Made by a program: the position numbers and the translations under genes
Virus record (IMG/VR): IMGVR_UViG_3300047376_000522
Coordinates: 1-34,861 of that record
Source: a virus
Reading direction: 5' to 3' (one strand)
DNA: 34,861 nt
The notes under the pieces: model-generated
What the model was told of the DNA's origin: nothing
What the model saw: only the letters and a program-made list of their open reading frames with translations
Database searches by the model: none
In this document: one piece after another, positions 13,848 to 32,325 of the stretch
How the letters are laid out: every line of letters starts with the position of its first letter
Position numbering within the stretch: the first letter of the stretch is position 1

Positions 13848-13892
13848 CTGTTAATCAGTGGGTCGCTGGTTCGAGCCCAGCAGGCGGAGCCA
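13848..13892 (+). other. attP: Phage attachment site core (tRNA-Asn 3' fragment)
   Basis: This segment reads as the 3' half of a tRNA-Asn gene: the anticodon loop CTGTTAA (anticodon GTT) at 13848, a T arm GCTGG-TTCGAGC-CCAGC, the acceptor strand AGGCGGA, the discriminator G, and CCA at 13890-13892. The anticodon stem does not pair properly with the upstream bases and no matching 5' acceptor strand exists, so it is not an intact tRNA. It is the crossover core that would restore the host tRNA-Asn 3' end on integration. Confidence 0.75.
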
Positions 13893-13939
13893 ATATCTAC
13901 GCGGCTTACAGGGACGTAGGCCAGTCGAGAGTAGCCCCT

Positions 13940-13974: not shown

Positions 13975-15234
13975 CTACTTCTTAGCCCTTTCAGCCTCTG
14001 CAAACAGGGAGTTGAGCAACACCCCTGCACCCGCCGTTCCAGACGCCAGCAGCCCAAGCAGCGGCACGGTGGCGTTGCCCATGATGTTGCTGCCGGTGTA
14101 CTGCGGGTCGTATGCGGCGTTCACAGACCTGATCTGGTTCTCTGAGCCGGGGAACATGACCGTGTGGCGGCCTGCGCCCATCGACGGAAACCTTGAGGGC
14201 GCCAGATCATCTACAACGCCGCTCGCGCCACCTCGCGCCATGACCTGTCCAACCACACCGCCAGCACCAACAATATCACCCTCGGGCGTCTCGGCCGCTG
14301 CAGGCCCGATCTTATCCCTTACGTCCTGCCACGTATCGCCCTCATATATCGACTCGACCTGCGACATATCGGCGTCCATATCATTCCCGACGCCAAACAG
14401 GTTCTGATTGGGGCTGTCGTAGTCCTCCCAATTTAATTCCGTAGCGCGCTCCTCTATCTCGTAGAGCACATCCTCGTCATAATCTTCGTTGACGTACTTG
14501 TCATAGTCATAGCCAAGCTCGTCAGCCGCCTGCGCGTTATAGTTGGGCAGCTCAACCTCGTCTTTTACGTTTAGCAGGCCGTCCTGCTTGACGCGAACGG
14601 GATAGATCACTCCATCGTTGGCACCCTTCACCTGCTTTCTGGCTATCGTGCTCGTCAGGGCCGAGGCCAGCAGATTCTCGGACTGCTCGTTAAGCAAGAA
14701 CTCCGGGTGGTCAGGCATGTACACGCCACCGTGAAAAGAAATCAGCCCAGAGTCGTCAGCCCAGCCTCGGACCTTTGCCATGTCATGCTCGTTTAGTCCG
14801 TACTCGTCCTGAATGTCTAGCAAGGTCTCGTTCAAGTCCTCGCTATATCTAACCCTACCCTTTATCTCATCCTCTATTTGCTCTTTCGTGTTCTCTATTC
14901 GATTGGTGAGGTCTGGGCCTTCCCCTGCGTAGTTGGTGCTGGCGTCCCATGTGTCATTCGTCAGGTACGTGCCCTGACCCCAGTCGTTACCGGGGTTGCC
15001 CTGACCGCTGAACTCGGTGATGTCGTGGGTGCTGCCGTGGTACAGCTCGTCGCCGTAGCCCTGAGCTATACGCCTAGCCTCGACGCTCGCAGGGTCCATA
15101 GGCAGCTCGCCCGTGGCGATGCGATTCGCCACAGACTCAGGGAAGCCCCCGACGCGCACTAGGTCCTCTACCGCACCGGCAATGTCGTCGCCTCTGGCCT
15201 TCCGTATGATGTTAACTAACGATAGCGCGCTCAT
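13975..15234 (-). CDS. ADP-ribosyltransferase-like virion protein
   Basis: This is a 419-aa protein at the end of the virion block. Residues 61-103 match the front of an ADP-ribosyltransferase (ART) fold: ELYHGSTHDI with Tyr65-His66, the Gly-Thr-Tyr-Leu-Thr motif at 88-92 and a YA pair at 102-103. The third ART motif is at 365-370 (ENQIRS), followed by AAYDP as in many phage ART domains. The long Asp/Glu-rich middle separates these. The C-terminus (about 388-407) is hydrophobic (VPLLGLLASGTAGAGVLL), suggesting membrane insertion. Encoded with ejection proteins, it may be injected to modify host proteins, as T4 Alt does; that is inference. Confidence 0.65.
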   Translation of the reverse strand: MSALSLVNIIRKARGDDIAGAVEDLVRVGGFPESVANRIATGELPMDPASVEARRIAQGYGDELYHGSTHDITEFSGQGNPGNDWGQGTYLTNDTWDASTNYAGEGPDLTNRIENTKEQIEDEIKGRVRYSEDLNETLLDIQDEYGLNEHDMAKVRGWADDSGLISFHGGVYMPDHPEFLLNEQSENLLASALTSTIARKQVKGANDGVIYPVRVKQDGLLNVKDEVELPNYNAQAADELGYDYDKYVNEDYDEDVLYEIEERATELNWEDYDSPNQNLFGVGNDMDADMSQVESIYEGDTWQDVRDKIGPAAAETPEGDIVGAGGVVGQVMARGGASGVVDDLAPSRFPSMGAGRHTVMFPGSENQIRSVNAAYDPQYTGSNIMGNATVPLLGLLASGTAGAGVLLNSLFAEAERAKK

Positions 15235-16281
15235 CTATTTGGACTCAATGAAGTCAAACAGGGACCGGTGCCCCCTCGGACGGTCATACCATTCTGTGTA
15301 GTCCATCCACGCCGGCTGCTCAGCCCGCTCTCCCGCCTTCAGTCTCCTTCTTAACTCCACGGCGCGTGCCTCTGCCTCTCCGGCGTTCAGGCCGTAGAAG
15401 AACCTAGACAGCTCCTGCTGGTGTGCGTCCGCCGGCCTAGGACTCCCCTCTACTACGTGCGAGTCGAGCTTCTCGGCATCTGTTATGAGCTTGTGCATCA
15501 GGTCTGCCTTGGGGCCCGCCTTTTCTGAGTAGTCGAGGTGCTTTGACAGGAACTCGTCAGGGGTCCACGAGGAGCTTGCCCCGGCAGACATCCCCTCAAA
15601 GTTTTGTATTCCATGCTGCGCCTCGTGCAGCAGGGTTCTGATAAACTCCTCCCTGTCGCCCTCCAGCATGTAGTCCGCGTTCGCCACCATTAAGCCCGAC
15701 TTTGAGCCGGGGTATCGCTTCATTATCGAGGCGGGTATATCAGACGGCGGGACGTATCCAGCAGCAGCACCTCCTATCTCCTCTCCCGTCTGGAATATCA
15801 GCGGCATATCCTTAAAGTCTGGGTAGAGGTTAAACAGGTTGTCGTGCTTTAGCAGCAGGCCAAGCGCGCTGATCATGTCCTCGCCATTGTGCACCTTGTC
15901 CCTAACCATGCCCTGAACGTTTCTATTAAATCTCTTGTCCACCGAGGCGCTGGCGTCGTTAAACTCAAACCTAGGCCGACCGTCTGCGCCGACGAACCAC
16001 CCCTGACGAGAGTTGCCGGCGTCCTTCGACATTAGGTACTGCGCCATCAGGCTCTCATTAGCGTCCTGCAAGTCGTTCGGATTTTTAAAGCTTTTAGGGT
16101 CGATAAAGTCGTCGTAGTATCTGCCCACAGCCGCCATCGCGCCGTCCTTGCTCGCCCCCTTGGCTAACAGGCTCGCAAAGCCAGCATCGGCATCCTCCGA
16201 CTGCGTAGCCGCAGCGCCGCCCACAAGGGCGGGCGCCAGCCACTTCTTAATTATCTGATCTGCTGCAATCTTAGCGGCCAT
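15235..16281 (-). CDS. Zincin-like metallopeptidase domain virion protein (LPD23-like)
   Basis: This is a 348-aa protein with a zinc-protease motif, LLHEAQHGIQNFEG (His219, Glu220, His223), and a downstream GEAEAR (301-306) whose Glu may be the third metal ligand. The flanking pattern (HDNLFNLYPDFKDMPLIF at 146-163, then SGLMVANADYML) agrees with the LPD23-type domain of phage polyvalent proteins. A short Ala-rich hydrophobic N-terminal segment (WLAPALVGGAAA) precedes an acidic DAD motif. The gene directly precedes the ART gene and overlaps the upstream one by 11 bases. Peptidase activity is not proven; a structural role in ejection is possible. Confidence 0.65.
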   Translation of the reverse strand: MAAKIAADQIIKKWLAPALVGGAAATQSEDADAGFASLLAKGASKDGAMAAVGRYYDDFIDPKSFKNPNDLQDANESLMAQYLMSKDAGNSRQGWFVGADGRPRFEFNDASASVDKRFNRNVQGMVRDKVHNGEDMISALGLLLKHDNLFNLYPDFKDMPLIFQTGEEIGGAAAGYVPPSDIPASIMKRYPGSKSGLMVANADYMLEGDREEFIRTLLHEAQHGIQNFEGMSAGASSSWTPDEFLSKHLDYSEKAGPKADLMHKLITDAEKLDSHVVEGSPRPADAHQQELSRFFYGLNAGEAEARAVELRRRLKAGERAEQPAWMDYTEWYDRPRGHRSLFDFIESK

Positions 16282-17272
16282 GATTTAAAAGCCCCTTAAA
16301 TCCTCTTTTAATTCCCGACCCCACGGCGCCCATGCCGATGTAGTCAAGCGGGTTGGTCATGTACTCGGTGGCAATCCCGGCAGCGGCGGCGTCGGTTGGG
16401 TGCCAGCCCCTTTCGAGTGCCCACTGCTCGACCCCGTCCCCGGCAACATCTGCGGGCTGGTTTGAAACCCTGACGCCGGCGTCCCAAGCCTGAGACGGTG
16501 ACTCCCCGGAGAACGCTCCGTACATGCCCCTTCCAACGCCTCTGGCGAACCCTCCAACGCTGTCGTATTGCTCCATCCTCTCTCCTATCTTGCCACCCAT
16601 GTACTGCGCGGGCGCGGTCTGAGACAGGTTGTAAAGGCCCCTAGCGTATGGCGCCAGAGCGTCCCTGTATGTGTCTAGGCTGGTCACCCGGTCCAAGTAG
16701 CTAGGCTGTGGCTCGTAGTCCGACCAAGGCGTAAAGCCCCTCTGCTCTGGAGTCTGGCTCTCTCCCTGCGGGCCAAATGCAGATGGTATCCCCGGCCCCA
16801 GCAATGGCTCTTCCCCTGCGCTGGCGGCCCCTGATCCTGCTACAGCCGCTGCCGCCGCAACAGTGTGCGGCATGGCGTAGCTGCTGTCCCTGCCTACCCT
16901 GCCGTCCCGCCACAGGTTCAGGCCGTCCATCAGATCCTTGTCGACCTTGTCGGGCTCTATCCCATCGAGCAGCATGTCGTAGATGCCTTGGAGCTGGGTC
17001 TTGTAGTGCTCACCTCCGGCACCCTCTACCGCCCGAGATGTCTTCCCTATGTGCTCGTAGTTCGTGTTCTTATGAATCCAGTCGGTGACCGTCCTCTCTG
17101 GAGATATGCCGTTCTGCTTATTCTTGGCGACCAGCTTTCTGAGCTGCGCATAGGGGTGCTGCACACCCTTAACAAACTTCGCAACCGGCATCGCCTCCGC
17201 GTCATCAGACGCAAACAGCCCGCCAAGTGCTGATGCGGCAGCGGCCCCGACTGGCAATAATCCTTTCGGCAT
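16271..17272 (-). CDS. Virion/ejection protein with hydrophobic N-terminus
   Basis: This is a 333-aa protein of unknown function. Residues 1-28 are an Ala/Gly-rich hydrophobic cassette ending in acidic residues (LLPVGAAAASALGGLF, then ASDDAEA). A helical region (about 30-130) precedes a second Ala-rich stretch (TVAAAAAVAGSGAASA), a Pro/Gln linker and a C-terminal helical part rich in Gly and Tyr. GGAGGA overlapping the upstream stop provides the RBS. Membership of the ejection-protein set is inferred from position and composition. Confidence 0.6.
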   Translation of the reverse strand: MPKGLLPVGAAAASALGGLFASDDAEAMPVAKFVKGVQHPYAQLRKLVAKNKQNGISPERTVTDWIHKNTNYEHIGKTSRAVEGAGGEHYKTQLQGIYDMLLDGIEPDKVDKDLMDGLNLWRDGRVGRDSSYAMPHTVAAAAAVAGSGAASAGEEPLLGPGIPSAFGPQGESQTPEQRGFTPWSDYEPQPSYLDRVTSLDTYRDALAPYARGLYNLSQTAPAQYMGGKIGERMEQYDSVGGFARGVGRGMYGAFSGESPSQAWDAGVRVSNQPADVAGDGVEQWALERGWHPTDAAAAGIATEYMTNPLDYIGMGAVGSGIKRGFKGLLNHGR

Positions 17273-18358
17273 CTATTCCTCCATTAACTCTTCGACTAGC
17301 AGCGGCGCCGCAAACAGGCTCGTGCTGCCTGCAGCCAGAACTGCCAGTAGTGCTGGGTTGATGCTCCCGACATCAACGCCACGGTCCTGCAGCTTCTTCA
17401 ATATCTCTGGTGTGATGGTGCCCCTGTAGGGCTTCATCTGCATTGCGCGTATGTCTGCGTCCGCAGGGTTCAGCGGGTCCACGGCGTCGCCTACACGCCT
17501 CTGGTTCTCGCCTATGCGTGCGTCAGGGATGAGGTCAAAGATCGTCATAGGCTGGTCTTCAAGCGTCCCCAAGCCCACTCCCGGCATGTTGTCGGAGTAG
17601 TCGGGGTGCGTGCCGTCGATTATCACAGGCTTGCTGCCGTGCAGCTCGCCCACGTTCATGATTCCAGCGTCTCGCGCATTAGTCTGGCGTGGGTCTGCAA
17701 TAGACAGCCTAGCCTCACCGATGTTCAGGCCGCCACGGTTCCTGAACTGCACATCCATTGCGCTCTTGATTGCCTTGCGGTGCTTGTCGGGCATCGCTTG
17801 GAAGGACCCCACGGCATCTTCGCTATCGAGCCCAGCCCAGCTGTCGTCAATCCCCCTGATGACGGCGTCGAAATGCTTTTTTGTTGCCTTGTCCATGTTG
17901 GACTGTGCGTAGCGGATCATCGTGCCGCCGGTCATGCTGGAGAAGTCACTGCCAGTGGGCGCCATGCGCCACGGTATGAATAGCACATCGTCGCCTTCAG
18001 CCGCGTTCATGTTCTTGGTGACGGCGCCCTTCTGAGAGGCCCACACCTTGCCCGGATTCCAGAACATAAAGTCCTGACCGCCCAGCAGCGGCTGCTCACT
18101 GGCAAGCTCGACACCGTTGATGCTTTGTATAACACCGCCGGCATCGGTCCTGTCGGACATAGAGGTAATGAAGTCGCGACCCTCCAGATCCGACAACTTC
18201 AGCTGCGGAACGTCTGGCTGCGGTGCGTACATCTTCTCGACTATCAGGTCCTGCAGCCTCTGCTGCTCACCAACCCGCTGATCGTACCGGGGGTCGAACT
18301 CGTCGAATGACTGCTTCACATAGTCGAACAGACTCGTGGCTAGTTTCGCCCTGCTCAT
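17273..18358 (-). CDS. Virion/ejection protein, polyvalent-type domain
   Basis: This is a 361-aa protein. The central region (about 50-200) has conserved-looking segments (FITSMSDRTDAGGVIQSING, then QDFMFWNPGKVWASQKGA and FIPWRMAPTGSDFSSM) that recall domains inside large phage polyvalent proteins; I cannot name the family with confidence. A middle part (LHGSKPVIIDGTHPDYS) precedes a C-terminal alanine-rich hydrophobic segment (NPALLAVLAAGSTSLFAAPL) before an acidic tail. It is coupled to the upstream gene (TAATG). It probably travels in the virion. Confidence 0.6.
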   Translation of the reverse strand: MSRAKLATSLFDYVKQSFDEFDPRYDQRVGEQQRLQDLIVEKMYAPQPDVPQLKLSDLEGRDFITSMSDRTDAGGVIQSINGVELASEQPLLGGQDFMFWNPGKVWASQKGAVTKNMNAAEGDDVLFIPWRMAPTGSDFSSMTGGTMIRYAQSNMDKATKKHFDAVIRGIDDSWAGLDSEDAVGSFQAMPDKHRKAIKSAMDVQFRNRGGLNIGEARLSIADPRQTNARDAGIMNVGELHGSKPVIIDGTHPDYSDNMPGVGLGTLEDQPMTIFDLIPDARIGENQRRVGDAVDPLNPADADIRAMQMKPYRGTITPEILKKLQDRGVDVGSINPALLAVLAAGSTSLFAAPLLVEELMEE

Positions 18359-20271
18359 TACTTCATCCCCTCCGTTAGCAGACCAGCCCCGTCCAGAGAC
18401 TTCTTAATCTTGGCAGCATCAGCCGCCATCTTTGCGCCCTGCCCCATCATCGAAAACACTGGTAAGCCGCCGGTCAAGGCTGCCTCGGCGCCGAGCGCGC
18501 CCGCAACTTTTGCGCCACCCAGATCACGAAGCCTTCTTATTAGCTCTCCGGCGGTTCCGGGGTTTACTGCCTGCGGCGGCAGTGACGCGATAGCGTCAGA
18601 CACCTCAACGAGGTCGCGAATGTACTGTGCCTGCTGCGGCCCGAGCATCGTCTCCAGCTTCCCGCTCCGGTCTAAGTCACCCACCTTGCGCTTGAAGGTT
18701 GCAGCCGTCAGCAGAGGCGTACCAGCACCGTCGCTGGTCTGCATCCCGAACGCGCTCTTTCTGATGTCTCGCAGGAACTCCGCCTGCACGCTTCGCCAAG
18801 CGGCCTGACCCTCTGGGGTCGACTCCAGTGTTGCTTTTATCTGCCTAACCTCAGCGTTTGACGAGTTGGCGATCTTCTTTGAGATGTTCTCATCGGCAAC
18901 GCGCGGGGAGTTTGTCTTGCGCTGGTTGGTGTCCAAGTCTCTTGCGACCGGGGAGTTATCAAACTCGTTGTAGTATCGAGAGGCAATGCCGCGCGCGTTA
19001 CTGTACGCAGGCCCCGCATCAACCGAGTCCATTCCACTGTCGATTGCGTTAACGAACAGCCGCCGCTGCCGAGCCTCCTTGGGCACGGTAACGTCGTATG
19101 CGTCGTTTACGAACTGACGGAAGGTCTCCAACGTGTCGGCGTTGGTGGTCTTTAGTGTGCCGTCGTCGTTTATGATGTTGAGCCGCTTTGCCTCTTGGAA
19201 TACGGGCTCGTTCATTGGGTTAATGCCGCGCTTAATCCAAGCCGACTGGAAAATCTCTGTCAGGCCGGCCTCATCAAGAACCTTAGGATCAATGGGCGCA
19301 GACATCTCACCAGCGTCTCTGGCCTCCTGATAGGCGGCATCAACCTCCCGCTTTCTTGATGCCTTGTAGTCGACCAGTGACTGGCGTGCCGCTGCGCCCT
19401 GCTCCTCTAGAGAGCCAAACCGGGGAGCGTTGAGGTCGTCCTCCATCGCGTCAAAGTTCTGGCCAGCGACCACCTGCTGACTGCGGCGGCGGTCAAGCAT
19501 GTCCTTGTTGCCGTCCCTTGCGGCCTCATTCTCGTACTTGATCTGCTCGGAATCGCGGGTAGCCTGACCACGTGTTAGACCGGAGTCGCCCTCAAAAGGT
19601 ATAGGCAGCCCCTGAGACGTTGTAATACGCTCTCTGGCCTTGTCTGTCTCGGCAGCACCCATAGACCTATTGTTAGCAGGCGGAGCTGTAGCGCGCCTGT
19701 AAGCCTCCTGAGCTCCCCTCACGGGTGCAGTTGCCACGTTCTGCGTCTGTCGTAGCGCCTCTCTGGCGACTACTGGCGCACCCTGACTGACGCCCATCAT
19801 ACTTCGGGCGGGGGCAAGCGGAGATCCCGGTATCACGGCCAGCGGCTCAAGTATGCGTGCGTCTTGATCGAAGTCGGCAACCGCCTCAACAGCGGGTCTA
19901 ATTGCCTCCGATGCAGAGTCAAGAACCGCCTGACCGCCGTCAGTATAGGCATCGCCCTTAGAGAACTGATCGGTGACCTCCCCCATCGTCCTGCGGACGG
20001 TGCGAACGCCTTCCTGAGTGCCATAGGTGCCCTCGTCAACGGCGTTGTATAGGCCCTTTGCCAGACCATAGGTTGACCCAGCAATAGTGCCACCCATGTT
20101 GGACAGCACCGTGCCGGCTGCATCGGAGTAGGCGCGGAATGTGTCCATCACGCCCATGTCCCTGCCGCCGCCGGAACTCTTCAGCTCCGCTGCTAACACC
20201 CTAGCCGCATCCGTGTCGCCGGCTAGGTGGGCATTACGCAGAGCCTCCTCCAGTTGTCGTTGTGAAGCCAT
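18358..20271 (-). CDS. Large internal virion / DNA-ejection protein
   Basis: This is a 637-aa protein, the longest of the ejection set. The N-terminus (MASQRQLEEALRNAHLAGDT) has the small helical unit found at the start of many phage internal virion proteins. The middle is helical, with charged Arg/Glu repeats and an extended domain around 270-520, and the end has an Ala/Gly-rich hydrophobic stretch (GGAKVAGALGAEAALTGG). ATG 20271 is used rather than the TTG one codon upstream. No lysozyme or transglycosylase motif is visible, so cell-wall cleavage would need another protein. Confidence 0.65.
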   Translation of the reverse strand: MASQRQLEEALRNAHLAGDTDAARVLAAELKSSGGGRDMGVMDTFRAYSDAAGTVLSNMGGTIAGSTYGLAKGLYNAVDEGTYGTQEGVRTVRRTMGEVTDQFSKGDAYTDGGQAVLDSASEAIRPAVEAVADFDQDARILEPLAVIPGSPLAPARSMMGVSQGAPVVAREALRQTQNVATAPVRGAQEAYRRATAPPANNRSMGAAETDKARERITTSQGLPIPFEGDSGLTRGQATRDSEQIKYENEAARDGNKDMLDRRRSQQVVAGQNFDAMEDDLNAPRFGSLEEQGAAARQSLVDYKASRKREVDAAYQEARDAGEMSAPIDPKVLDEAGLTEIFQSAWIKRGINPMNEPVFQEAKRLNIINDDGTLKTTNADTLETFRQFVNDAYDVTVPKEARQRRLFVNAIDSGMDSVDAGPAYSNARGIASRYYNEFDNSPVARDLDTNQRKTNSPRVADENISKKIANSSNAEVRQIKATLESTPEGQAAWRSVQAEFLRDIRKSAFGMQTSDGAGTPLLTAATFKRKVGDLDRSGKLETMLGPQQAQYIRDLVEVSDAIASLPPQAVNPGTAGELIRRLRDLGGAKVAGALGAEAALTGGLPVFSMMGQGAKMAADAAKIKKSLDGAGLLTEGMK

Positions 20272-20282
20272 CAAATACTCCG

Positions 20283-21338
20283 TTATCTGGTATACTGCTC
20301 GACAAGATCGTTAATGCTTCGGTCTCGTTCATCCCTCGGGTGCCACATATCCTCCGGCTTGATACCGAGTATCTCACCAAACTTCCTGTTCAGCCTTTTA
20401 AGCTCCTCTTCTGTCTGGTCGTCGCTCTGCAAGAAGTCTGTGATCATCGACTGCGCGCTTCTCGCTGCCTCTGCCTCTTGCTCGGTAACCTGACCCTGAC
20501 CCTTCAGCTCGCCGCGTGCGAACATGTAGAGGATGTTGCTCAACCTATCCAGCTTCGCCTTGGCGTTGAGGGACTCGGGTAGTACGGTTGGCGTCCTTCC
20601 ATCAATCGCGCCGTACAGACCTCGGTAGCTCTCGTCATCCAGCAGCTGCATGGTGATGTCGAACGCATCCTGAAGCTGCGGCATACGCGACTCCTCGGTG
20701 ACCTCTGCCGCCGTGTCAAGCTTCGCCCTCTCTGTGGCGGACGTTATGGCGGCTGCTTCTTCCGCCTTTTGCTCGGGCGTCTGACGCCCAGCGACAAAGT
20801 CCATGTCTGCGCGGTCAGCCTCGCTGGCGTTCCTTCTTATGTGCCACCTTCTCGTCTCTGGTGATAGAGACATGAAATCCGTGTATGACATACCTGCAAG
20901 CTGTGCCTGCTGGGCCATGTAGCCGCCCTGATTACCCTGATAATTGCTGGCACCCAAGTCCTGAAGGGGAGTTGGTAGGTTTGCAATGTCGGCAATTGTT
21001 GGGTTGCCCATATTGATGCCGTTGAGCATGGCATCCTCACGCCGCTGCTCGACTTGGTCGTAGTAGTGCTCCAGCTCGGCCTTGTATCGTGCGTTGCCGC
21101 CGATCAGCTCGGGCATAAGGAACGGTGTCAGGCCGGTCATGCCGCCCAGCAACATCTTGCCAAAGGTCTTGCCCTTGCCGTCGCGCTCGATCATCTTCTC
21201 GATGGGGCTCAGTGGCATGGGCAGCAGTGAGTCCGCCATCGCCACGTTGGGGGCGTCCTCGATCATCTGCGGAGTCACGCCTTGCAGCGATAGGAGGCCG
21301 CGATTCCTCTCCGCCTCTTTTGTGTAATCGCGCGCCAT
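20283..21338 (-). CDS. Internal virion / DNA-ejection protein
   Basis: This is a 351-aa helical protein. A Gly/Met-rich hydrophobic segment (FGKMLLGGMTGLTPFLMPEL, about 59-78) near the N-terminus could insert into a membrane. The rest is charged and helical with many Gln and Glu, and it ends in a basic/acidic coil (DERDRSINDLVEQYTR). It lies between small Ser/Gln-rich structural genes and the large ejection protein, and its start overlaps the upstream stop (TAATG). Confidence 0.6.
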   Translation of the reverse strand: MARDYTKEAERNRGLLSLQGVTPQMIEDAPNVAMADSLLPMPLSPIEKMIERDGKGKTFGKMLLGGMTGLTPFLMPELIGGNARYKAELEHYYDQVEQRREDAMLNGINMGNPTIADIANLPTPLQDLGASNYQGNQGGYMAQQAQLAGMSYTDFMSLSPETRRWHIRRNASEADRADMDFVAGRQTPEQKAEEAAAITSATERAKLDTAAEVTEESRMPQLQDAFDITMQLLDDESYRGLYGAIDGRTPTVLPESLNAKAKLDRLSNILYMFARGELKGQGQVTEQEAEAARSAQSMITDFLQSDDQTEEELKRLNRKFGEILGIKPEDMWHPRDERDRSINDLVEQYTR

Positions 21339-21802
21339 TATCGACCCCCTTGCCCGCCGAGGTTCTGGTCTCTCATGTAGTTATTGATGTTGAATCCATA
21401 CGGGCTCTGGCCTTGGGTGGCGTAGAACTGCTGCTTCATCTCCGGCGTAAGGTTCGCCATCCACTGTGGCTCCTGCTGCTGTGGCGCGGCGGGTGCTGGC
21501 GCCACCTCCTGCTGGGGCATCATTGACTTAATTAGGTCTGGCGTCTCAAACTGCATAGGCTGCCCGCCCGTCGCCCTCAGAAAGTTAGCGAGGGCTGGGT
21601 TGTCAGACATCATCTGCTGGCCGCTCTCGATGAGGGGCATAATCGTTCTGGCAATGGTTGAGCCTTGCTCACCCATGAGGCTGTTCAGCCAGCCATTGGT
21701 TCCCGCCTGCGTAGAACTGCCAACCTGCGAAACGGCGTTGGCCATGTTGCTGCCGGCGCTACCGCTGCTCGATGAGCTCTTGCTTTTACTTTTTCCACCC
21801 AT
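21338..21802 (-). CDS. Small Ser/Gln-rich virion protein with MGGK N-terminus
   Basis: This is a 154-aa protein that begins MGGKSKSK followed by a serine tract, then a helical region (NPALANFLRATGG) and a Pro/Gln-rich linker. The C-terminal part (LTPEMKQQFYATQG and on) has a polar fold. Its N-terminus parallels that of the next upstream gene (MGGKNKS), so the two may share a targeting signal. It is probably a minor or ejected virion protein. Confidence 0.55.
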   Translation of the reverse strand: MGGKSKSKSSSSSGSAGSNMANAVSQVGSSTQAGTNGWLNSLMGEQGSTIARTIMPLIESGQQMMSDNPALANFLRATGGQPMQFETPDLIKSMMPQQEVAPAPAAPQQQEPQWMANLTPEMKQQFYATQGQSPYGFNINNYMRDQNLGGQGGR

Positions 21803-21813
21803 TATATCTCTCC

Positions 21814-22731
21814 TTATCCCGCAAAGCTGAAGCTAGGCGGCGCAATGTTCCAGCCGCTAGAATTTCCGCTACCTGAAGAACCGCCAGCGGAGTTGTTGAA
21901 TCCGCCGCCTTGGCTCATGTTCATACCGACGTTCATGCCATTGCTGAAGCCTTGGCTTGAGGAGCTGTTAGAAGAGCCGCCAGAAGACTGCGTCAGCGTC
22001 GTAGGCCCGCCAATGATCTGGCCGTACATGCCGGTTGCGTTCAGACCAGCCATCGCTGGGTTGAACTGGTTCATCGCCGCCTGCTGCATCGCGCCGGTCT
22101 GGCCTACGCCAAACTGCTGATTCCGATCCATCATCCCGGCTAAATTCATCTTGTTAGCGACTCCCTGATTGTGCGCTTGGAAGCCCAGATTATTCATGCC
22201 CTGCATCGTCTGCCTGTCGACGTTGTTTGCCATCTTGTTGGCTGACGAGTGATACCCAGTCGATCCAGACATGCCTGACGCCGCCGCCCTAGCATCCAGA
22301 CCGCCAAGGTTCTGTTGCTTGATAAGGTTGGCGTCGTTCATCATGTCGCCCTTCAGGGCGTTTACATAACTGTTGGGGCCGACCTGACCCTGAAGCCCTG
22401 CCGCGAAGCCGCCCTGAGACTGTGCCGCATTGCCAGCCATTCCCTGAGACGCCGCTTGGCTCACCTGATCCTGAACCTGAGGCTGCATACCGTTGATCGA
22501 GTCAATAGCCTGACCGTACTGGTCAGTGGCGGAGCCGTAGACGTTCTCTAGGTGGGGCGACTGAGTGCCCCATACGTCCTGACTGGAGCTGTTGTAAGAG
22601 CTGCCGCTGGAGCTTGAGTTCTGCCCCGACTGGTTCACGCCATAGTTGACACCCATGCCAGAATTGACATTCTGGCCCGTGGACGCCTGCTGGCTGTTGC
22701 TCTGCTGGTTACTCTTGTTCTTGCCGCCCAT
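21814..22731 (-). CDS. Gln/Ser/Gly-rich internal virion protein
   Basis: This is a 305-aa low-complexity protein, rich in Asn, Gln, Ser, Gly and Met. It starts MGGKNKS, has a helical core (about 65-225; for example SQAASQGMAGNAAQSQGGFA and KLNAAM-type Met/Gln helices) and ends in a Ser/Gly tail closing with PPSFSFAG. The composition and position resemble ejection proteins of podoviruses that form the transient channel. No catalytic motif is visible. Confidence 0.6.
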   Translation of the reverse strand: MGGKNKSNQQSNSQQASTGQNVNSGMGVNYGVNQSGQNSSSSGSSYNSSSQDVWGTQSPHLENVYGSATDQYGQAIDSINGMQPQVQDQVSQAASQGMAGNAAQSQGGFAAGLQGQVGPNSYVNALKGDMMNDANLIKQQNLGGLDARAAASGMSGSTGYHSSANKMANNVDRQTMQGMNNLGFQAHNQGVANKMNLAGMMDRNQQFGVGQTGAMQQAAMNQFNPAMAGLNATGMYGQIIGGPTTLTQSSGGSSNSSSSQGFSNGMNVGMNMSQGGGFNNSAGGSSGSGNSSGWNIAPPSFSFAG

Positions 22732-22734
22732 GAG

Positions 22735-23172
22735 TTAACTCCGTAGGTTTTTTCCGAATATGATTTCTTTGATCTCCCAGCCCACCTTGTCTACTGCATA
22801 CTGGACAGCAGGCATCTGAGCCGAGCGCGTTTCGATTCTCTGGCAGTTGCACTGCCGAGCTACATCCTCGTAGAAGCTGGCGAACGTCACCGCGTTTGCC
22901 CCGCCACGCTCCTTGGCCCATGAGAGCCACAGCAGGAAGGTCCTGTCTCCCGTGAACTCATCGACCTCGATGGTGGCCACGTTGAAGAAGTTGGGGTGTA
23001 CCCAGAGCTGGCTCTCGCCGCCAACGCAGCTGGCATATACATCTTCCGGCCTGAAGGTGAGGTTTGGGTCTAGGTGCAGGATCTCTTCGATCCCCAGCTT
23101 GACCCAGTGCCACTCCTCTCGGATGTTGGCGACCCTCGGGTAAATGATTACGTCAGGTTTAGCTTTTTCCAT
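22735..23172 (-). CDS. GNAT-like structural-region protein
   Basis: This is a 145-aa protein. The middle (ATIEVDEFTGDRTFLLWLSW) and end (FYEDVARQCNCQRIETRSAQ and KVGWEIKEIIFGKNL) resemble a reduced GNAT acetyltransferase fold as often annotated in phage tail-gene clusters, but I see no clear acetyl-CoA P-loop. It may be structural rather than enzymatic. GGAG lies seven bases before the ATG, and the gene overlaps the upstream one by 25 bases. Confidence 0.5.
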   Translation of the reverse strand: MEKAKPDVIIYPRVANIREEWHWVKLGIEEILHLDPNLTFRPEDVYASCVGGESQLWVHPNFFNVATIEVDEFTGDRTFLLWLSWAKERGGANAVTFASFYEDVARQCNCQRIETRSAQMPAVQYAVDKVGWEIKEIIFGKNLRS

Positions 23173-23498
23173 GCGAGATCTCCATTCTCTATTTCAACGC
23201 ATCCGTAAAATCCCATCTCACGAACGTAAACTATTGCACCTATCTCAAGACGCAGGTCTGGCATAACGCGCTCTGGCATACTGCGCTTAGAGGTCCAGCT
23301 AAGGTCGGACGAGCCATTCCAGCTACCCTGATTGTCGTTCCAGCTACCGCCCTCGGAGACATCTCCGCTGCGCTTCGGCCCGACAATGGGGGCCGTGAAT
23401 CGAGACAGGTGCGAATCAATCCCAAAGAACTGCCTGTCTAGGAACTCAGCGAGATCCTCATCGACGCCGTCTGGTACGGGCTCCGCCCTATAGGTCAT
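23148..23498 (-). CDS. Small tail-region protein with Trp-ladder motif
   Basis: This is a 116-aa protein of unknown fold. Residues 50-68 read GGSWNDNQGSWNGSSDLSW, with Trp at 53, 60 and 68, the same spacing as in two other virion proteins here. The last third is a beta-like domain (VYVREMGFYGCVEIENGDLA). ATG 23498 overlaps the upstream stop (ATGA); GTG 23519 is possible but has no better RBS. It is probably an accessory of the adjacent tail hub protein. Confidence 0.55.
   Translation of the reverse strand: MTYRAEPVPDGVDEDLAEFLDRQFFGIDSHLSRFTAPIVGPKRSGDVSEGGSWNDNQGSWNGSSDLSWTSKRSMPERVMPDLRLEIGAIVYVREMGFYGCVEIENGDLAWKKLNLT
23295..23342 (-). repeat. Trp-ladder motif in the 116-aa tail protein
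   Basis: This encodes W-x6-W-x7-W (residues 53-68). Parallel motifs are at 24932-24979 and twice within 30977-31084. The shared features are spacing, Asp/Asn after Trp and Gly-Ser between. Confidence 0.6.
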
Positions 23499-25141
23499 CT
23501 TGAACCAGCCGGTTGCCACTCAACGTCGAGGCCGCTGATATTAAAGTTGCCATTGGCTGGCCCCTCAACGCGCCATGAGTGCAGCTCGCCCGAAGTCCTG
23601 ACATCGATCTTGCGATCCGTCGAGGGAGAAAACTCGCGCTTGTCGCCAGCCCATCGTGCGCCGTCGCCAGCGTAGTGGTGGCTGCCCACCGATACCTTCA
23701 CTGGGGTCTTTCCCTCGACCAGAGGGTAGATCCTAGTGATTGTGCTAACGTCCTCATGACCAACGATAGGCATGTGTGTTCGCTCAATGAAGGTTGTCAG
23801 CCCCTCCTCGTCAGGGTTCTGGGTGTCGAGGTTGTAAACGTCTGGGCCGGAGGCGCCGAGCAGGGCGCCGTCAAACGCCTGCCTGTTGGCAGTCGCCCAA
23901 GTGGCCCGCTCGTCTGCCCACAGACCCTCCCAAGCCTCCCACTCGTAGGTGGCGGTAGGCTTAACGCCGTATGCGGCGTGGGCAAACGTGCGCTCGGTGC
24001 TGAGATCTCTCAGGGCCCAAGTGTTGTCCCTATAGTTGTAGACGTATGCGACATTGGGCTGGTCATAGCCCTCCTCCGCAACGCAGAACCAGATCTCCCC
24101 CATCATCTTGTGGTGCGTGGCGAACGAGGTGTGCCGTGCGTCCTCGTTCAGGGTGCTGCCAAACCGCTTGCGTAATCTGCCGTGCAGTATGCTCTGGGCG
24201 TTGTTGCCGTCGAATACAAGTATGTCCTCGTTGGATATGAAGTAGTGCCGACCAGAGACCTCAACCAAGCCGTCGCGTGAAACTAGGCCGGCGTTCTGGG
24301 TGAGCGTTCGTCTGCGCCACACAAGCGCATCGCCCGTAAAGTCGAGTACATTGAGTGCCTTCTCGCTGTAGATAACAAAGCTGTCGCGCAGACTTTCTGC
24401 CCCAACGATGCGGCCACCCCGGCCAAGCGTCAGGTAGCCCGCTAGGCTGGACGGGTCAACGTCTGGGCCTTCCCACGTGTAGGGTATGCCGTTGGGCTCG
24501 CAGGGGTGCGACCAGCGTACCCTGTCCTCGTAGTAGGCGGTGTCGCCATTGACGGGGTCTGGCTCAGTCATGCCCATCGCAAACAGAAAGTTCTTGTGCG
24601 AGCAGATGATCCGGGCGTACACACCTCTATCTTCCCAAGAGTCGCCGCCTGCCACCCAAGGGAGGTCAATGGCCTGCTCTGATCCCGTAGACCAGTCAGT
24701 AAAGTAGACGGGGTTCAATGAGGGGTTGTTCAGGAACGTGACCTGACCTATCTGGCAGCTAGTCCAAGATAGCTCGTCAACCTCCCTGCCAATGTCAAGG
24801 ATGACCTCAAACTTGTTGTCGGAGTAGCTCTCAACAGTTTTGTTGGTACACGCAAGCCACGCACTGTTCCCCTCAAAGTCACTGCTTTGCAGGATGTGAC
24901 CAATGTTACCGCCAGCTGCGGAGCCTGAACCCCAGCTATATTCGGTTGAGCCATCCCAGCTACCTGTTTGCTCGTCCCACTTGTATGTGACGTTGTCCTT
25001 CTTCGATCCGCCAGACGCCTGAATCTTGCCGGACATGACGCGGAAATTGCGCCCGTCAGTCAATCCGTTGGGCGGCAGTTCCCACGCAGCCACATCTGAG
25101 ATGACCCCGACCTCACCGATTCCGCGTACATTGATTAGCAT
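23495..25141 (-). CDS. Tail hub / DNA-stabilisation-like protein (beta-propeller)
   Basis: This is a 548-aa, beta-strand-rich protein probably forming the tail hub or nozzle near the connector, like podovirus packaged-DNA stabilisation proteins. After an N-terminal segment (ELPPNGLTDGRNFRVMSGKI, about 21-40) comes a Trp-ladder motif (KWDEQTGSWDGSTEYSW, ending at 70). Repeating blades follow (LAGYLTLGRGGRIVGAESLR; GLVEVSGRHYFISNEDILVF; VYNYRDNTWALRD). A degenerate Trp ladder recurs at 401-415. It occupies the tail-hub position between fibres and ejection proteins. Confidence 0.6.
   Translation of the reverse strand: MLINVRGIGEVGVISDVAAWELPPNGLTDGRNFRVMSGKIQASGGSKKDNVTYKWDEQTGSWDGSTEYSWGSGSAAGGNIGHILQSSDFEGNSAWLACTNKTVESYSDNKFEVILDIGREVDELSWTSCQIGQVTFLNNPSLNPVYFTDWSTGSEQAIDLPWVAGGDSWEDRGVYARIICSHKNFLFAMGMTEPDPVNGDTAYYEDRVRWSHPCEPNGIPYTWEGPDVDPSSLAGYLTLGRGGRIVGAESLRDSFVIYSEKALNVLDFTGDALVWRRRTLTQNAGLVSRDGLVEVSGRHYFISNEDILVFDGNNAQSILHGRLRKRFGSTLNEDARHTSFATHHKMMGEIWFCVAEEGYDQPNVAYVYNYRDNTWALRDLSTERTFAHAAYGVKPTATYEWEAWEGLWADERATWATANRQAFDGALLGASGPDVYNLDTQNPDEEGLTTFIERTHMPIVGHEDVSTITRIYPLVEGKTPVKVSVGSHHYAGDGARWAGDKREFSPSTDRKIDVRTSGELHSWRVEGPANGNFNISGLDVEWQPAGSR
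24932..24979 (-). repeat. Trp-ladder motif in the tail hub protein
   Basis: This encodes W-x6-W-x7-W at residues 55-70. A degenerate copy spanning residues 401-415 (W-x6-W-x6-W) is at 23897-23941. Confidence 0.6.
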
Positions 25142-25713
25142 TACGCTTTGCTCTCCACCTCTTGGCTCAACTCTTTAACTGCCTCCAGCAGGAGAACGCA
25201 CAGCCGTGCGTAGTCCACGGCGAGATAGCCGTTGTCTGCCTGATGTACCGCCTGAGGGAATACCGCCTGAACCTGTTGTGCAGAGACGCCTGCCTGCTCG
25301 GTGGCGGCCATCCCGCACTCCACGCCCCGCTCGTTAGGGAGGTACGTGAAGGTGTCAATCGTCTTCACCTTTTCTAGGGCGTTATCTATGGTCGAGCGCC
25401 TCTCCTTCAGTCGCTCATCAGACTGGCTGAACACGTTGCCGGTGGCATTGAGGTTGGCGCACTGGATGTTACCCTCCGTGTCGATCCTGACTCCGTCAGT
25501 CTCCGCCCACTTACCGGCCACGCTATGTACCACCGAGCCTTGCTCCATGCTCGGATAAACAATCGGCGCTTGGGGGGAGCCAGCCTCCGGGAACGTCTCT
25601 TGCAGTACGCGCTTGATAAGGCGAAGATGGTCGTCACCGGAGGATATTGCGTCGTTAGGTGTTGGCCAGCTATTGTCCAGCTCGGTGATGTATTTAGCAG
25701 TCTCAAGACCCAT
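25141..25713 (-). CDS. Tail fibre/spike tip with S74 intramolecular chaperone
   Basis: This is a 190-aa protein. Residues 8-42 (ITELDNSW...GDDHLRLIKRVL) are a virion-attachment module that also occurs in the gene at 26868. A short shaft (45-95) leads to the C-terminal S74/ICD chaperone: FSQSDERLKE with Ser98-Asp99 at the self-cleavage site, then KVKTIDTFTYLP, AGVSAQQVQAVFPQAV and a terminal helix. Such domains trimerise fibres and then cut themselves off. The fibre part is very short, so receptor specificity probably lies elsewhere. Confidence 0.75.
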   Translation of the reverse strand: MGLETAKYITELDNSWPTPNDAISSGDDHLRLIKRVLQETFPEAGSPQAPIVYPSMEQGSVVHSVAGKWAETDGVRIDTEGNIQCANLNATGNVFSQSDERLKERRSTIDNALEKVKTIDTFTYLPNERGVECGMAATEQAGVSAQQVQAVFPQAVHQADNGYLAVDYARLCVLLLEAVKELSQEVESKA

Positions 25714-26867: not shown

Positions 26868-27446
26868 TTACTGCCCAGAGTCCATATCTACAACGATAAG
26901 GGTGAACCCAAGCTTCATGCCATCAATTGGAACCCAATCGTTTTCTAACCACTTCCAAGCTATAAAGCCGACAGTTTTAGCCCCGGCGGCGGAAACCTTT
27001 AGTATCACCGGGGAACCAGAGCTATCTACTGCCGAAAAGTTAAACGCAAAATGGGAGTAGTTCTCCCCCATATCAGGAAGCTCGTCGGTAAAGGTGATCT
27101 TAGTCTGAGGTAGCTCTGGAATTCCTGCGGCCTCAACACTTGCGATGTTGTGGCCGTAAACCAGACCCGTTACTCCGTTTACGGAGCCAGTAAAGTCGGG
27201 ATTGAAATAGCAAGACGCCACATTGCCGTGAGCGCCTGCCTCCAAGGCATCAAGCTCGGCCTTGATATTGCCGACTTCATTTAGCTCTGCGGGCGTTGCC
27301 GTTACGGCTGAGTCTATGTTGGGGAAGCTCCCCTTGACCGCGTCCTTGATAAGCCTGATGTGGTCGTCACCCTCGGAAAGGCTATCGCCACCCTCGGGGT
27401 ACTGCGGATCTAACTGCTTGATGTACTGCGCCTGCTCTACTGTCAT
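26868..27446 (-). CDS. Short tail fibre paralogue
   Basis: This is a 192-aa protein that shares an N-terminal module with the S74 fibre gene: YIKQLDPQYPEGGDSLSEGD, then DHIRLIKDAVKGSFP. Here a beta-rich domain (NVASCYFNPDFTGSVNG; KWLENDWVPIDGMKLG) replaces the S74 tip. It probably attaches to the same position in the virion as the paralogue. ATG 27446 is the start; a 48-base gap with no gene lies upstream. Confidence 0.6.
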   Translation of the reverse strand: MTVEQAQYIKQLDPQYPEGGDSLSEGDDHIRLIKDAVKGSFPNIDSAVTATPAELNEVGNIKAELDALEAGAHGNVASCYFNPDFTGSVNGVTGLVYGHNIASVEAAGIPELPQTKITFTDELPDMGENYSHFAFNFSAVDSSGSPVILKVSAAGAKTVGFIAWKWLENDWVPIDGMKLGFTLIVVDMDSGQ

Positions 27447-31666: not shown

Positions 31667-32325
31667 ACTACAAGTCCGTCCGTGTATGTGCGTAGGGATG
31701 GGCCAGACCATCTCGTCACCTGATCGTCTTGGGCGATGCCCATGAGCGAATCAACGAAGCGACCCTTATATAGCTCGTAGCCGATAGCGTCCTTGGCAAA
31801 GGCGCATATCTCAGCGCACAATCCGAAGATGTATGCGTCAGGGTGCTTGTTGGTGAGCCAGTTAGTATCTTTATCTTCAGCCAGAGGCGGCACGGTCTGG
31901 TAATAGACCACCTCTAGAACTTGGTTGTCGGCTGGTGGTGCTATCTGAATCTGGTTGGCAATCACGGTGTAGTAACGCTGCCGCTCCCGGCGGCTGGTTC
32001 CATTCATCTGCTCTGGGTTGACGTATATAAGCGTCATTCCACCCGCTGGCGAAGGTGCGTAGCCCCTGCTCGTAGAGCCAGACTCTTGGTTTACGAGTTC
32101 AACGTCGCGGAAGCCGCCCCAGTCGCTGGGCAGCCCGTAGTACTCATTGCCGCGCTCCAACCATATCTGCGCCCGCACTGACTGCTCACCCGTCTTCAGG
32201 GCAGTATTGATCTTGGACTCCACCACCTTGGTGAAGCCCGGAATAGCGTTGACCAGTTCCTGATCGTATCGATCAACGTAGGATTGGGCCGCGTCTTTAA
32301 CTTGCTTGTAATTCATATCGGCCAT
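31663..32325 (-). CDS. Head-tail adaptor protein (SU10-adaptor-like)
   Basis: This is a 220-aa protein. The helical N-terminus (MNYKQVKDAAQSYVDRYDQE), a central beta domain (IWLERGNEYYGLPSDWGGFR) and the pattern IQIAPPADNQVLEVVYYQTV with DTNWLTNKHPDAYIFGL fit the SU10-type adaptor that sits between portal and tail. It follows the long fibre gene with a 13-base overlap. An adaptor this close to the tail hub gene fits a short-tailed phage. Confidence 0.7.
   Translation of the reverse strand: MADMNYKQVKDAAQSYVDRYDQELVNAIPGFTKVVESKINTALKTGEQSVRAQIWLERGNEYYGLPSDWGGFRDVELVNQESGSTSRGYAPSPAGGMTLIYVNPEQMNGTSRRERQRYYTVIANQIQIAPPADNQVLEVVYYQTVPPLAEDKDTNWLTNKHPDAYIFGLCAEICAFAKDAIGYELYKGRFVDSLMGIAQDDQVTRWSGPSLRTYTDGLVV

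What the first reader, a model, noticed from the sequence alone, without database searches (positions are those of the whole stretch)
13975..18358. Polyvalent-type domains encoded as separate virion genes: ART, zincin and others
Four consecutive genes encode an ART-like protein, an HExxH (LPD23-like) protein and two proteins with segments resembling polyvalent-protein domains. In other phages such domains are often fused into one giant injected polyprotein. Here they are separate ORFs with 1-11 base overlaps or abutting ends, next to ejection proteins. This suggests an injected effector set delivered at infection, possibly to counter host defence or modify host machinery.
Basis: partly seen in the sequence, partly recalled or inferred. 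Interest (0 to 1): 0.65.

Follow-up and report, generated by a model that had tools for sequence, protein, structure and literature searches.

The report
Split set of injected phage effectors
A temperate phage carries, directly behind its DNA-ejection genes, four separate cysteine-free genes whose parts (an ADP-ribosyltransferase fold, a zinc-protease-like domain and two others) are pieces of large 'polyvalent' injected proteins in other phages, so it most likely sends a swappable set of effector proteins into the host along with its DNA.

Summary
Four minus-strand ORFs lie at the stated coordinates, overlapping by 1-11 bases or abutting. P1 (419 aa) has an ART fold: the 11 best structural rows are all ART-fold chains, the top one an unannotated domain in the solved pre-ejectosome of cyanophage A-4L. 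Its subfamily keeps H66, Y90 and Y102, but an invariant His (H357) stands where other polyvalent ARTs have Glu. P2 (348 aa) belongs to the LPD23/HExxH family; H219, E220, H223 and E302 are invariant in 42 of 42. P3 and P4 have no Pfam family, but each occurs fused to ART, zincin or an ejection-protein N-terminus in relatives. There the modules are fused, split, swapped (GNAT, methyltransferase) or absent; where the contig shows it, they follow P22-like ejection genes. The eight proteins encoded in 13975-22731 (2909 aa) contain no cysteine; other late proteins carry 9.5 per 1000. Known ejected proteins of T7, P22, N4 and A-4L show the same depletion (2 in 9581 aa versus 173 in 21440). The injected-effector reading is well supported by inference; virion presence, host targets, counter-defence and ART activity remain untested. 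New variant of a known kind (polyvalent proteins).

The parts
13975..15234 (-). P1: leader (aa 1-60) + ART-fold domain (about aa 57-373) + hydrophobic tail
   Evidence: PF18760; AlphaFold model pLDDT 82.6 and ART-fold matches
15055..15234 (-). P1 leader, aa 1-60, shared by relatives with different cargo behind it
   Evidence: 78% identity over 67 aa to L003/L002 P1 while the middle differs; found before the P4 domain in L017-L021
14164..15039 (-). Span from conserved ART residue H66 to H357, including Y90 and Y102
   Evidence: 33 of 33 aligned members keep all four; Glu at the H357 position in F116 and other ART-PolyVal
14014..14070 (-). P1 C-terminal hydrophobic segment (aa 389-407)
   Evidence: Hydropathy 1.64; in L173/L003 the corresponding place is a linker leading to the P3 domain or a GNAT
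15235..16281 (-). P2: LPD23 + zincin-like HExxH protein
15613..15627 (-). HEAQH motif, aa 219-223
   Evidence: H219, E220, H223 invariant in 42 of 42
15364..15381 (-). GEAEAR motif, aa 301-306, with third-ligand candidate E302
   Evidence: E302 invariant in 42 of 42
16183..16239 (-). Border element in P2 (LAPALVGGAAATQSEDADA)
   Evidence: Recurrent A/G-rich + acidic element at module borders
16271..17272 (-). P3: border element + small domain + ejection-like C-terminal half (the last by inspection only)
   Evidence: Homologs in L002/L003 (36%); domain fused behind ART in L173
17192..17263 (-). Border element in P3 (GLLPVGAAAASALGGLFASDDAEA)
17273..18358 (-). P4: conserved domain known only from uncultivated phages; model suggests a PUA/YTH/EVE-like barrel (weak)
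   Evidence: 210 relatives in viral contigs, none in 84,980 genomes with the patterns used; model pLDDT 86.3; YTH/EVE rows Z up to 7.0
17294..17350 (-). P4 C-terminal hydrophobic segment (aa 337-355)
   Evidence: Hydropathy 2.04
18358..20274 (-). P5: ejection-cluster protein, homolog of AH02 gp13
   Evidence: 27% identity over 576 columns, E=3e-41; in L172 its homolog lies between the P6 and P1 homologs
20283..21338 (-). P6: P22 gp20-like ejection protein
   Evidence: PHROG 2534 E=1.2e-5, the family that AH02 'P22-like injection translocase' hits at 2e-46
21338..21802 (-). P7: small cysteine-free protein upstream of P6
21814..22731 (-). P8: Gly/Ser/Gln-rich cysteine-free protein; last member of the cysteine-free block
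13848..13893 (+). attP-like stretch, 3' half of a tRNA-Asn (GTT), next to the integrase
   Evidence: 97.8% match to the end of prophage CBW1004C-Prop1

Best explanation
The four ORFs are a polyvalent effector protein taken apart into single genes. They sit as an accessory array at the 3' end of a P22-like ejection operon (P8, P7, P6 = gp20-like, P5). They are translated late, packaged in the head with the ejection proteins and passed through the tail into the host with the DNA. Shown: ART fold of P1, complete zincin motif of P2, fusion of the modules to each other and to an ejection-protein N-terminus in relatives, swapping and loss of modules, operon structure, absence of cysteine. Inferred: packaging, ejection and action in the host. 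Most likely roles, also inferred: the zincin-like protein cuts co-delivered or host proteins, the ART-fold protein acts on host targets or NAD+, and P4 binds nucleic acid.
For: (1) Modules of all four ORFs occur fused elsewhere: leader+ART+P3 (L173), zincin+ART (L181, F116 p60, L111, L114, L139), zincin+P4 (L091), leader/ART-like+P4 (L017-L021), and P6 N-terminus+P4 in one 939-aa ORF (L003). (2) Gene content varies at a fixed place: AH02 has P6-P5 equivalents and then the tailspike, no array; L172 has P6-P5-P1; the window P6-P5-P4-P3-P2-P1; L002 has P4-methyltransferase-P3-P2-(ART-like+GNAT). (3) Zero Cys in P1-P8, 2909 aa; P=9e-13 at the rate of the other late genes. In 182 module ORFs 79% lack Cys versus 27% of 968 other ORFs. 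Control: proven ejected proteins of T7, P22, N4 and A-4L have 2 Cys in 9581 aa versus 173 in 21440 for other proteins of these phages. Lack of Cys in injected N4-type vRNAP is described (PMC3715699, PMC2784036). (4) The best structural match of P1 is residues 1418-1601 of 9k3a_B, Z 9.7, which is A-4L gp27 in a pre-ejectosome; its sequence there carries SLYHGT...GSGTYF. (5) Distances in P6-P1 are 8, -1, 0, -11 and 0 bases, leaving no room for separate promoters.
Against: No virion proteomics. Absence of cysteine goes with ejection but is also seen in some scaffold and head proteins. P3 and P4 have no known family. The ART third residue is His. Similarity of P6 and P5 to known ejection proteins is remote.
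Confidence: 0.75

Rival explanations
1. P1-P4 are structural or ejectosome-building parts: they are packaged and form or line the trans-envelope channel, and the ART and zincin folds serve as scaffolds without catalysis.
For: A-4L gp27 carries an ART-fold domain within a solved pre-ejectosome. The P1 subfamily has His in place of the usual acid. P1, P3 and P4 have hydrophobic segments.
Against: The zincin residues are invariant in 42 of 42, and H66, Y90, Y102 and H357 in 33 of 33, which a mere scaffold would not need. The modules are absent in a related phage that keeps P6-P5.
Confidence: 0.17
2. Lysogenic-conversion (moron) genes: the array lies at the attP end and is expressed in the lysogen, for example against superinfecting phages.
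For: P1 ends 82 bases from the attP-like stretch and next to the integrase. Iyer et al. allow such a use of captured polyvalent proteins (PMC5512222).
Against: No intergenic room for own promoters; same strand as and overlapping or abutting P5-P6. The cysteine-free block includes the ejection genes.
Confidence: 0.05
3. Readthrough of the two TAG codons (P4|P3 and P2|P1 are in frame) makes fused polyproteins as well as single proteins.
For: Both abutting junctions are TAG|ATG in frame.
Against: TAG is an ordinary stop in other genes of the window; the P2/P1 junction in L003 is an out-of-frame overlap.
Confidence: 0.03

Closest known systems
Polyvalent proteins (Iyer et al. 2017, PMC5512222)
   Same: Same domains (ART, LPD23/zincin; GNAT and methyltransferase in relatives), near virion genes, predicted delivery with DNA. 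That paper also notes solo versions of domains and small ORFs with polyvalent domains near the main gene.
   Different: Defined as 2-15 domains in one polypeptide; here one module per gene, in a compact array behind ejection genes, with variable content.
T4 Alt
   Same: Head-packaged, injected ART (PMC5512222).
   Different: R-S-E clade ART; P1 is of the H-Y type with His in strand 5.
Anabaena phage A-4L gp27 (PDB 9K3A chain B)
   Same: ART-fold domain in a pre-ejectosome protein; best structural match of P1.
   Different: One 1717-aa protein; no Pfam ART hit; strand-5 sequence differs.
Pseudomonas phages F116 and AF large proteins
   Same: F116 p60 carries LPD23/zincin followed by ART in one 1649-aa protein; AF gp16 (2213 aa) carries the zincin and no Cys.
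   Different: Fused; the F116 ART has Glu in strand 5.
N4 virion RNA polymerase and P22/T7 ejection proteins
   Same: Nearly or wholly cysteine-free ejected proteins; P6 is in the P22 gp20 family.
   Different: No ART or split effector array.

Membership tests
ART superfamily, ART-PolyVal (PF18760) | Sequence match to the family | tested here: met
   P1 itself is below the curated score (24.5 vs 31.2 bits); 32 of 33 aligned relatives match, best 3e-24
ART superfamily, ART-PolyVal (PF18760) | ART fold | tested here: met
   Model pLDDT about 86-97 over most of the domain; rows 1-11 are ART-fold chains: A-4L gp27 Z 9.7, MbcT 6.9, anti-CRISPR 6kyf 6.8, tankyrase 6.8, RES 5.8, diphtheria toxin 5.5, PARP14 5.2, Arr 5.1
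ART superfamily, ART-PolyVal (PF18760) | His in strand 1 and Tyr in strand 2 | tested here: met
   H66 and Y90, 33 of 33
ART superfamily, ART-PolyVal (PF18760) | Acidic residue (D/E) in strand 5 | tested here: not met
   His (H357) in 33 of 33; Glu at the gaplessly matching place in F116, L114, L121, L196, L224. Position judged from the sequence motif, not from atomic distances. So P1 is an ART-fold relative whose catalysis is open, not a proven ADP-ribosyltransferase
ART superfamily, ART-PolyVal (PF18760) | ADP-ribosyl transfer | not testable with these tools
   Needs biochemistry
Zincin-like MPTase of polyvalent proteins / LPD23 | HExxH plus downstream Glu ligand | tested here: met
   H219, E220, H223, E302 invariant in 42 of 42
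Zincin-like MPTase of polyvalent proteins / LPD23 | LPD23 match | tested here: met
   41 of 42 relatives, best 5e-22; P2 alone 0.005
Zincin-like MPTase of polyvalent proteins / LPD23 | Zincin fold | tested here: inconclusive
Profile gives IrrE at E=0.2, DUF6782 metallopeptidase in 10 of 42
Polyvalent protein | Several such domains in one polypeptide | tested here: not met
   Single-module ORFs in the window; fused in relatives
Polyvalent protein | Encoded among late virion genes | tested here: met
Ejected virion protein | Present in virion and delivered to the host | not testable with these tools
   Only indirect: cysteine depletion and operon position
YTH/EVE/PUA-like fold (P4) | Fold match | tested here: inconclusive
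   Almost all top rows are YTH, plus EVE protein PH1033, but Z at most 7.0 and Foldseek E at least 0.22

The most novel reading that the evidence does not exclude
Phages of this kind have a plug-in delivery array: behind the ejection genes, any cysteine-free effector that carries the shared leader or the hydrophobic-acidic border element can be packaged and ejected, so effectors are swapped as single genes; and its ART uses an H-Y-H active site with altered NAD+ chemistry.
Probability: 0.2. Interest if true: 0.78.

Novelty: new variant of a known kind. Interest (0 to 1): 0.58.

Why it matters
It turns one giant protein that is hard to study into single genes that can be expressed, deleted and tested one by one. 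It gives a simple sequence mark (absence of cysteine) that separates ejected from other virion proteins and could be used to list candidate injected effectors across phage genomes. It links polyvalent-type ART domains to a solved phage pre-ejectosome, and points to an ART subfamily with an unusual third residue.

Tried and rejected
(a) P3 and P4 against named phages: no match. P4 against 84,980 genomes: 18 pattern hits, no relative. (b) A joint alignment of read-through P2-P1 for one structure job failed: HExxH rows were placed on the ART, so P2 was not modelled. (c) PDB sequence profiles gave nothing significant for P1, P2 or P4. (d) Host from the attP: an exact 43-base match lies in one Cellvibrionales MAG contig without a tRNA call and a near match in a prophage record; host not settled. 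(e) The integrase was not found in the record of L003. (f) A stricter regular expression for strand 5 found nothing and was replaced. (g) TAG recoding or readthrough: rejected as unlikely. (h) Direct BLAST of P5-P8 to P22 proteins: nothing significant. (i) A published account of the A-4L pre-ejectosome was not in the library searched. (j) NCBIfam: nothing for P1-P5.
Full report
WHAT IS THERE. The window is a whole IMG/VR virus record of 34,861 bases. Its minus strand carries late genes from about 34.8 kb down to 13,975. Its plus strand carries DNA-metabolism genes (ribonucleotide reductase, a Sak-type annealing protein, an AAA protein) and an integrase. At the end of the late operon lie, in order of transcription, P8 (305 aa), P7 (154), P6 (351), P5 (638), P4 (361), P3 (333), P2 (348) and P1 (419). 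The four last are the finding. From P6 on, the genes are 8 bases apart, overlapping by 1 base, abutting, overlapping by 11 bases and abutting. An attP-like tRNA-Asn 3' half and the integrase follow.

P1 IS AN ART-FOLD PROTEIN. On its own it matches PF18760 (ART-PolyVal) at 5e-5, below the curated score. With 32 relatives found by scanning viral contigs, 32 of 33 match PF18760, best 3e-24. The AlphaFold model has pLDDT 82.6 overall and about 86-97 over most of the domain. Foldseek alone is weak (best E 0.033), but the second alignment puts ART-fold chains in rows 1 to 11: A-4L gp27 residues 1418-1601 (Z 9.7, 152 residues, 3.4 A), MbcT, the anti-CRISPR 6kyf, tankyrase, RES, diphtheria toxin, PARP14 and Arr. 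That these are ART-fold proteins is established knowledge, except for gp27, where it is my inference from this match and the motif. The top row is chain B of 9K3A, a cyanophage pre-ejectosome; its sequence is the whole of gp27 (A4L_27) of Anabaena phage A-4L. That protein has SLYHGT...GSGTYF from residue 1424 and no Pfam ART hit. So an ART-like domain sits in a solved in-virion ejection assembly.

AN UNUSUAL THIRD RESIDUE. H66, Y90, Y102 and H357 are invariant in 33 of 33. H357 begins strand 5 (HTVMF..QIRS). The gapless equivalents in F116 (REFVVFSPEQVKS), L114, L121, L196 and L224 have Glu; a wider scan gives 38 His and 6 Glu. Iyer et al. describe the polyvalent ARTs as H-Y-D with the D in strand 5 (PMC5512222). 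The P1 subfamily is therefore H-Y-H by motif. Invariance argues for function, but whether it transfers ADP-ribose is open.

P2 IS A ZINCIN-LIKE PROTEIN. In 42 aligned relatives H219, E220, H223 and E302 are invariant, with the signature HExQHxIQxxEGF and GExEAR. Of these, 41 match LPD23 (best 5e-22), 10 match DUF6782 metallopeptidase and one Peptidase_M78. The fold was not modelled.

P3 AND P4. P4 has 210 relatives in viral contigs, none in named phages and none in 84,980 genomes with the patterns used. Its model (pLDDT 86.3) matches, among solved structures, almost only YTH domains and the EVE protein PH1033, at Z up to 7.0. This is below the level where a match is safe, so a PUA/YTH/EVE-like barrel is only a lead. 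In predicted viral structures it matches 16 phage proteins at E below 0.001, one of them a 1231-aa 'structural protein' of a Flavobacterium phage. P3 has homologs only in close relatives and in L173.

MODULES ARE FUSED, SPLIT, SWAPPED AND LOST. Profiles of each module were run on all ORFs of about 220 loci. Leader+ART+P3 is one ORF in L173. Zincin+ART is one ORF in L181, F116 and others. Zincin+P4 is one ORF in L091. Leader and a second ART-like domain join P4 in L017-L021. The N-terminal 100 residues of P6 are fused to P4 in L003, whose close relative L002 has them apart. In L002/L003 a methyltransferase gene stands between P4 and P3, and the P1 homolog keeps the leader (78% over 67 aa) and the tail but has another middle and a GNAT; Iyer et al. 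note that GNAT typically neighbours ART. In L172 the P1 homolog directly follows P6 and P5 homologs. Pseudomonas phage AH02 has the P5 homolog (27%, E 3e-41) next to a 'P22-like injection translocase' and then the tailspike, with no array. So the array is accessory cargo at a fixed place.

BORDER ELEMENT. An A/G-rich hydrophobic stretch followed by an acidic xEAEA-like end recurs at module borders: P2 aa 15-33, P3 aa 4-27, between ART and GNAT or P3 in L003, L173 and L174, before P4 in L017-L021, and in L096, L101 and L105. The pattern hits 33 of 263 module ORFs against 7.1 in shuffles and 4 of 1334 other ORFs. The 33 include redundant loci; about 13 distinct strings remain. A processing site, a membrane segment or a plain linker are all possible.

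CYSTEINE ABSENCE. P1-P8 contain no Cys in 2909 aa. Other minus-strand genes have 39 in 4110, plus-strand genes 48 in 2691; the chance of none at the lower rate is 9e-13. The block ends sharply on both sides; in L002 a block of nine ORFs behaves the same. Of 182 distinct module ORFs, 79% have no Cys against 27% of 968 other ORFs; for 150-450 aa it is 94% against 27% (Fisher 2e-30; related sequences are counted as independent there, so the P value is too small). The 'other' set contains unverified ORFs, so the control that counts is annotated proteins: T7 gp14-16, P22 gp7/20/16, N4 gp50-52 and A-4L gp27 have 2 Cys in 9581 aa; other proteins of the same phages have 173 in 21440. For N4-type vRNAP this has been explained by passage through tail and periplasm (PMC3715699, PMC2784036). 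Some scaffold and head proteins also lack Cys, so the mark is not proof.

HOW IT MOST LIKELY WORKS. Shown: fold of P1, motifs of P2, homology relations, operon, composition. Inferred: late expression, packaging with the gp20-like ejection proteins, passage into the cell, and action there. Splitting needs no protease to free the domains, and lets each be gained or lost alone. What the effectors hit is not known; counter-defence and host take-over are both open.

KNOWN OR NEW. The domains and the idea of injected polyvalent proteins are known (PMC5512222), including solo domains and small neighbouring ORFs. Domain swapping among ejection proteins is also known (PMC8954989). New here are the array form with swapped content behind P22-like ejection genes, the His-type ART subfamily, the link to the A-4L pre-ejectosome, and the measured Cys depletion across polyvalent modules. 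I did not find these in the papers searched, which is a limited library.

Noticed in passing
L226 (NC_024358) 20116-25269: Anabaena phage A-4L gp27, annotated 'tail protein', is the 9K3A pre-ejectosome chain and has an ART-like domain near residues 1418-1601 that Pfam misses.
   Followed up: partly
window 13848-13893: attP-like 3' half of a tRNA-Asn (GTT) next to the integrase; near match in prophage CBW1004C-Prop1 and exact 43-mer in a Cellvibrionales MAG contig lacking a tRNA call. Host unsettled.
   Followed up: partly
L003 8267-11086 versus L002 3080-6986: Two closely related phages differ in the ejection region: three ORFs in L002, one 939-aa fusion of P6 N-terminus, an unrelated middle and P4 in L003.
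   Followed up: no
L174 125-2340: Two tandem ORFs share the leader and tail but carry different cargo (ART; ART-like plus GNAT), like a duplicated and re-armed gene.
   Followed up: no
window 25141-25713 and 26868-27446: Two tail genes share a similar N-terminal stretch of about 46 aa, suggesting a duplicated attachment part.
   Followed up: no
L002 6987-7580, L003 11087-11680: Cysteine-free methyltransferase gene inserted between P4 and P3 in relatives.
   Followed up: partly
window 32313-34793: 826-aa late protein with no Pfam or PHROG match.
   Followed up: no
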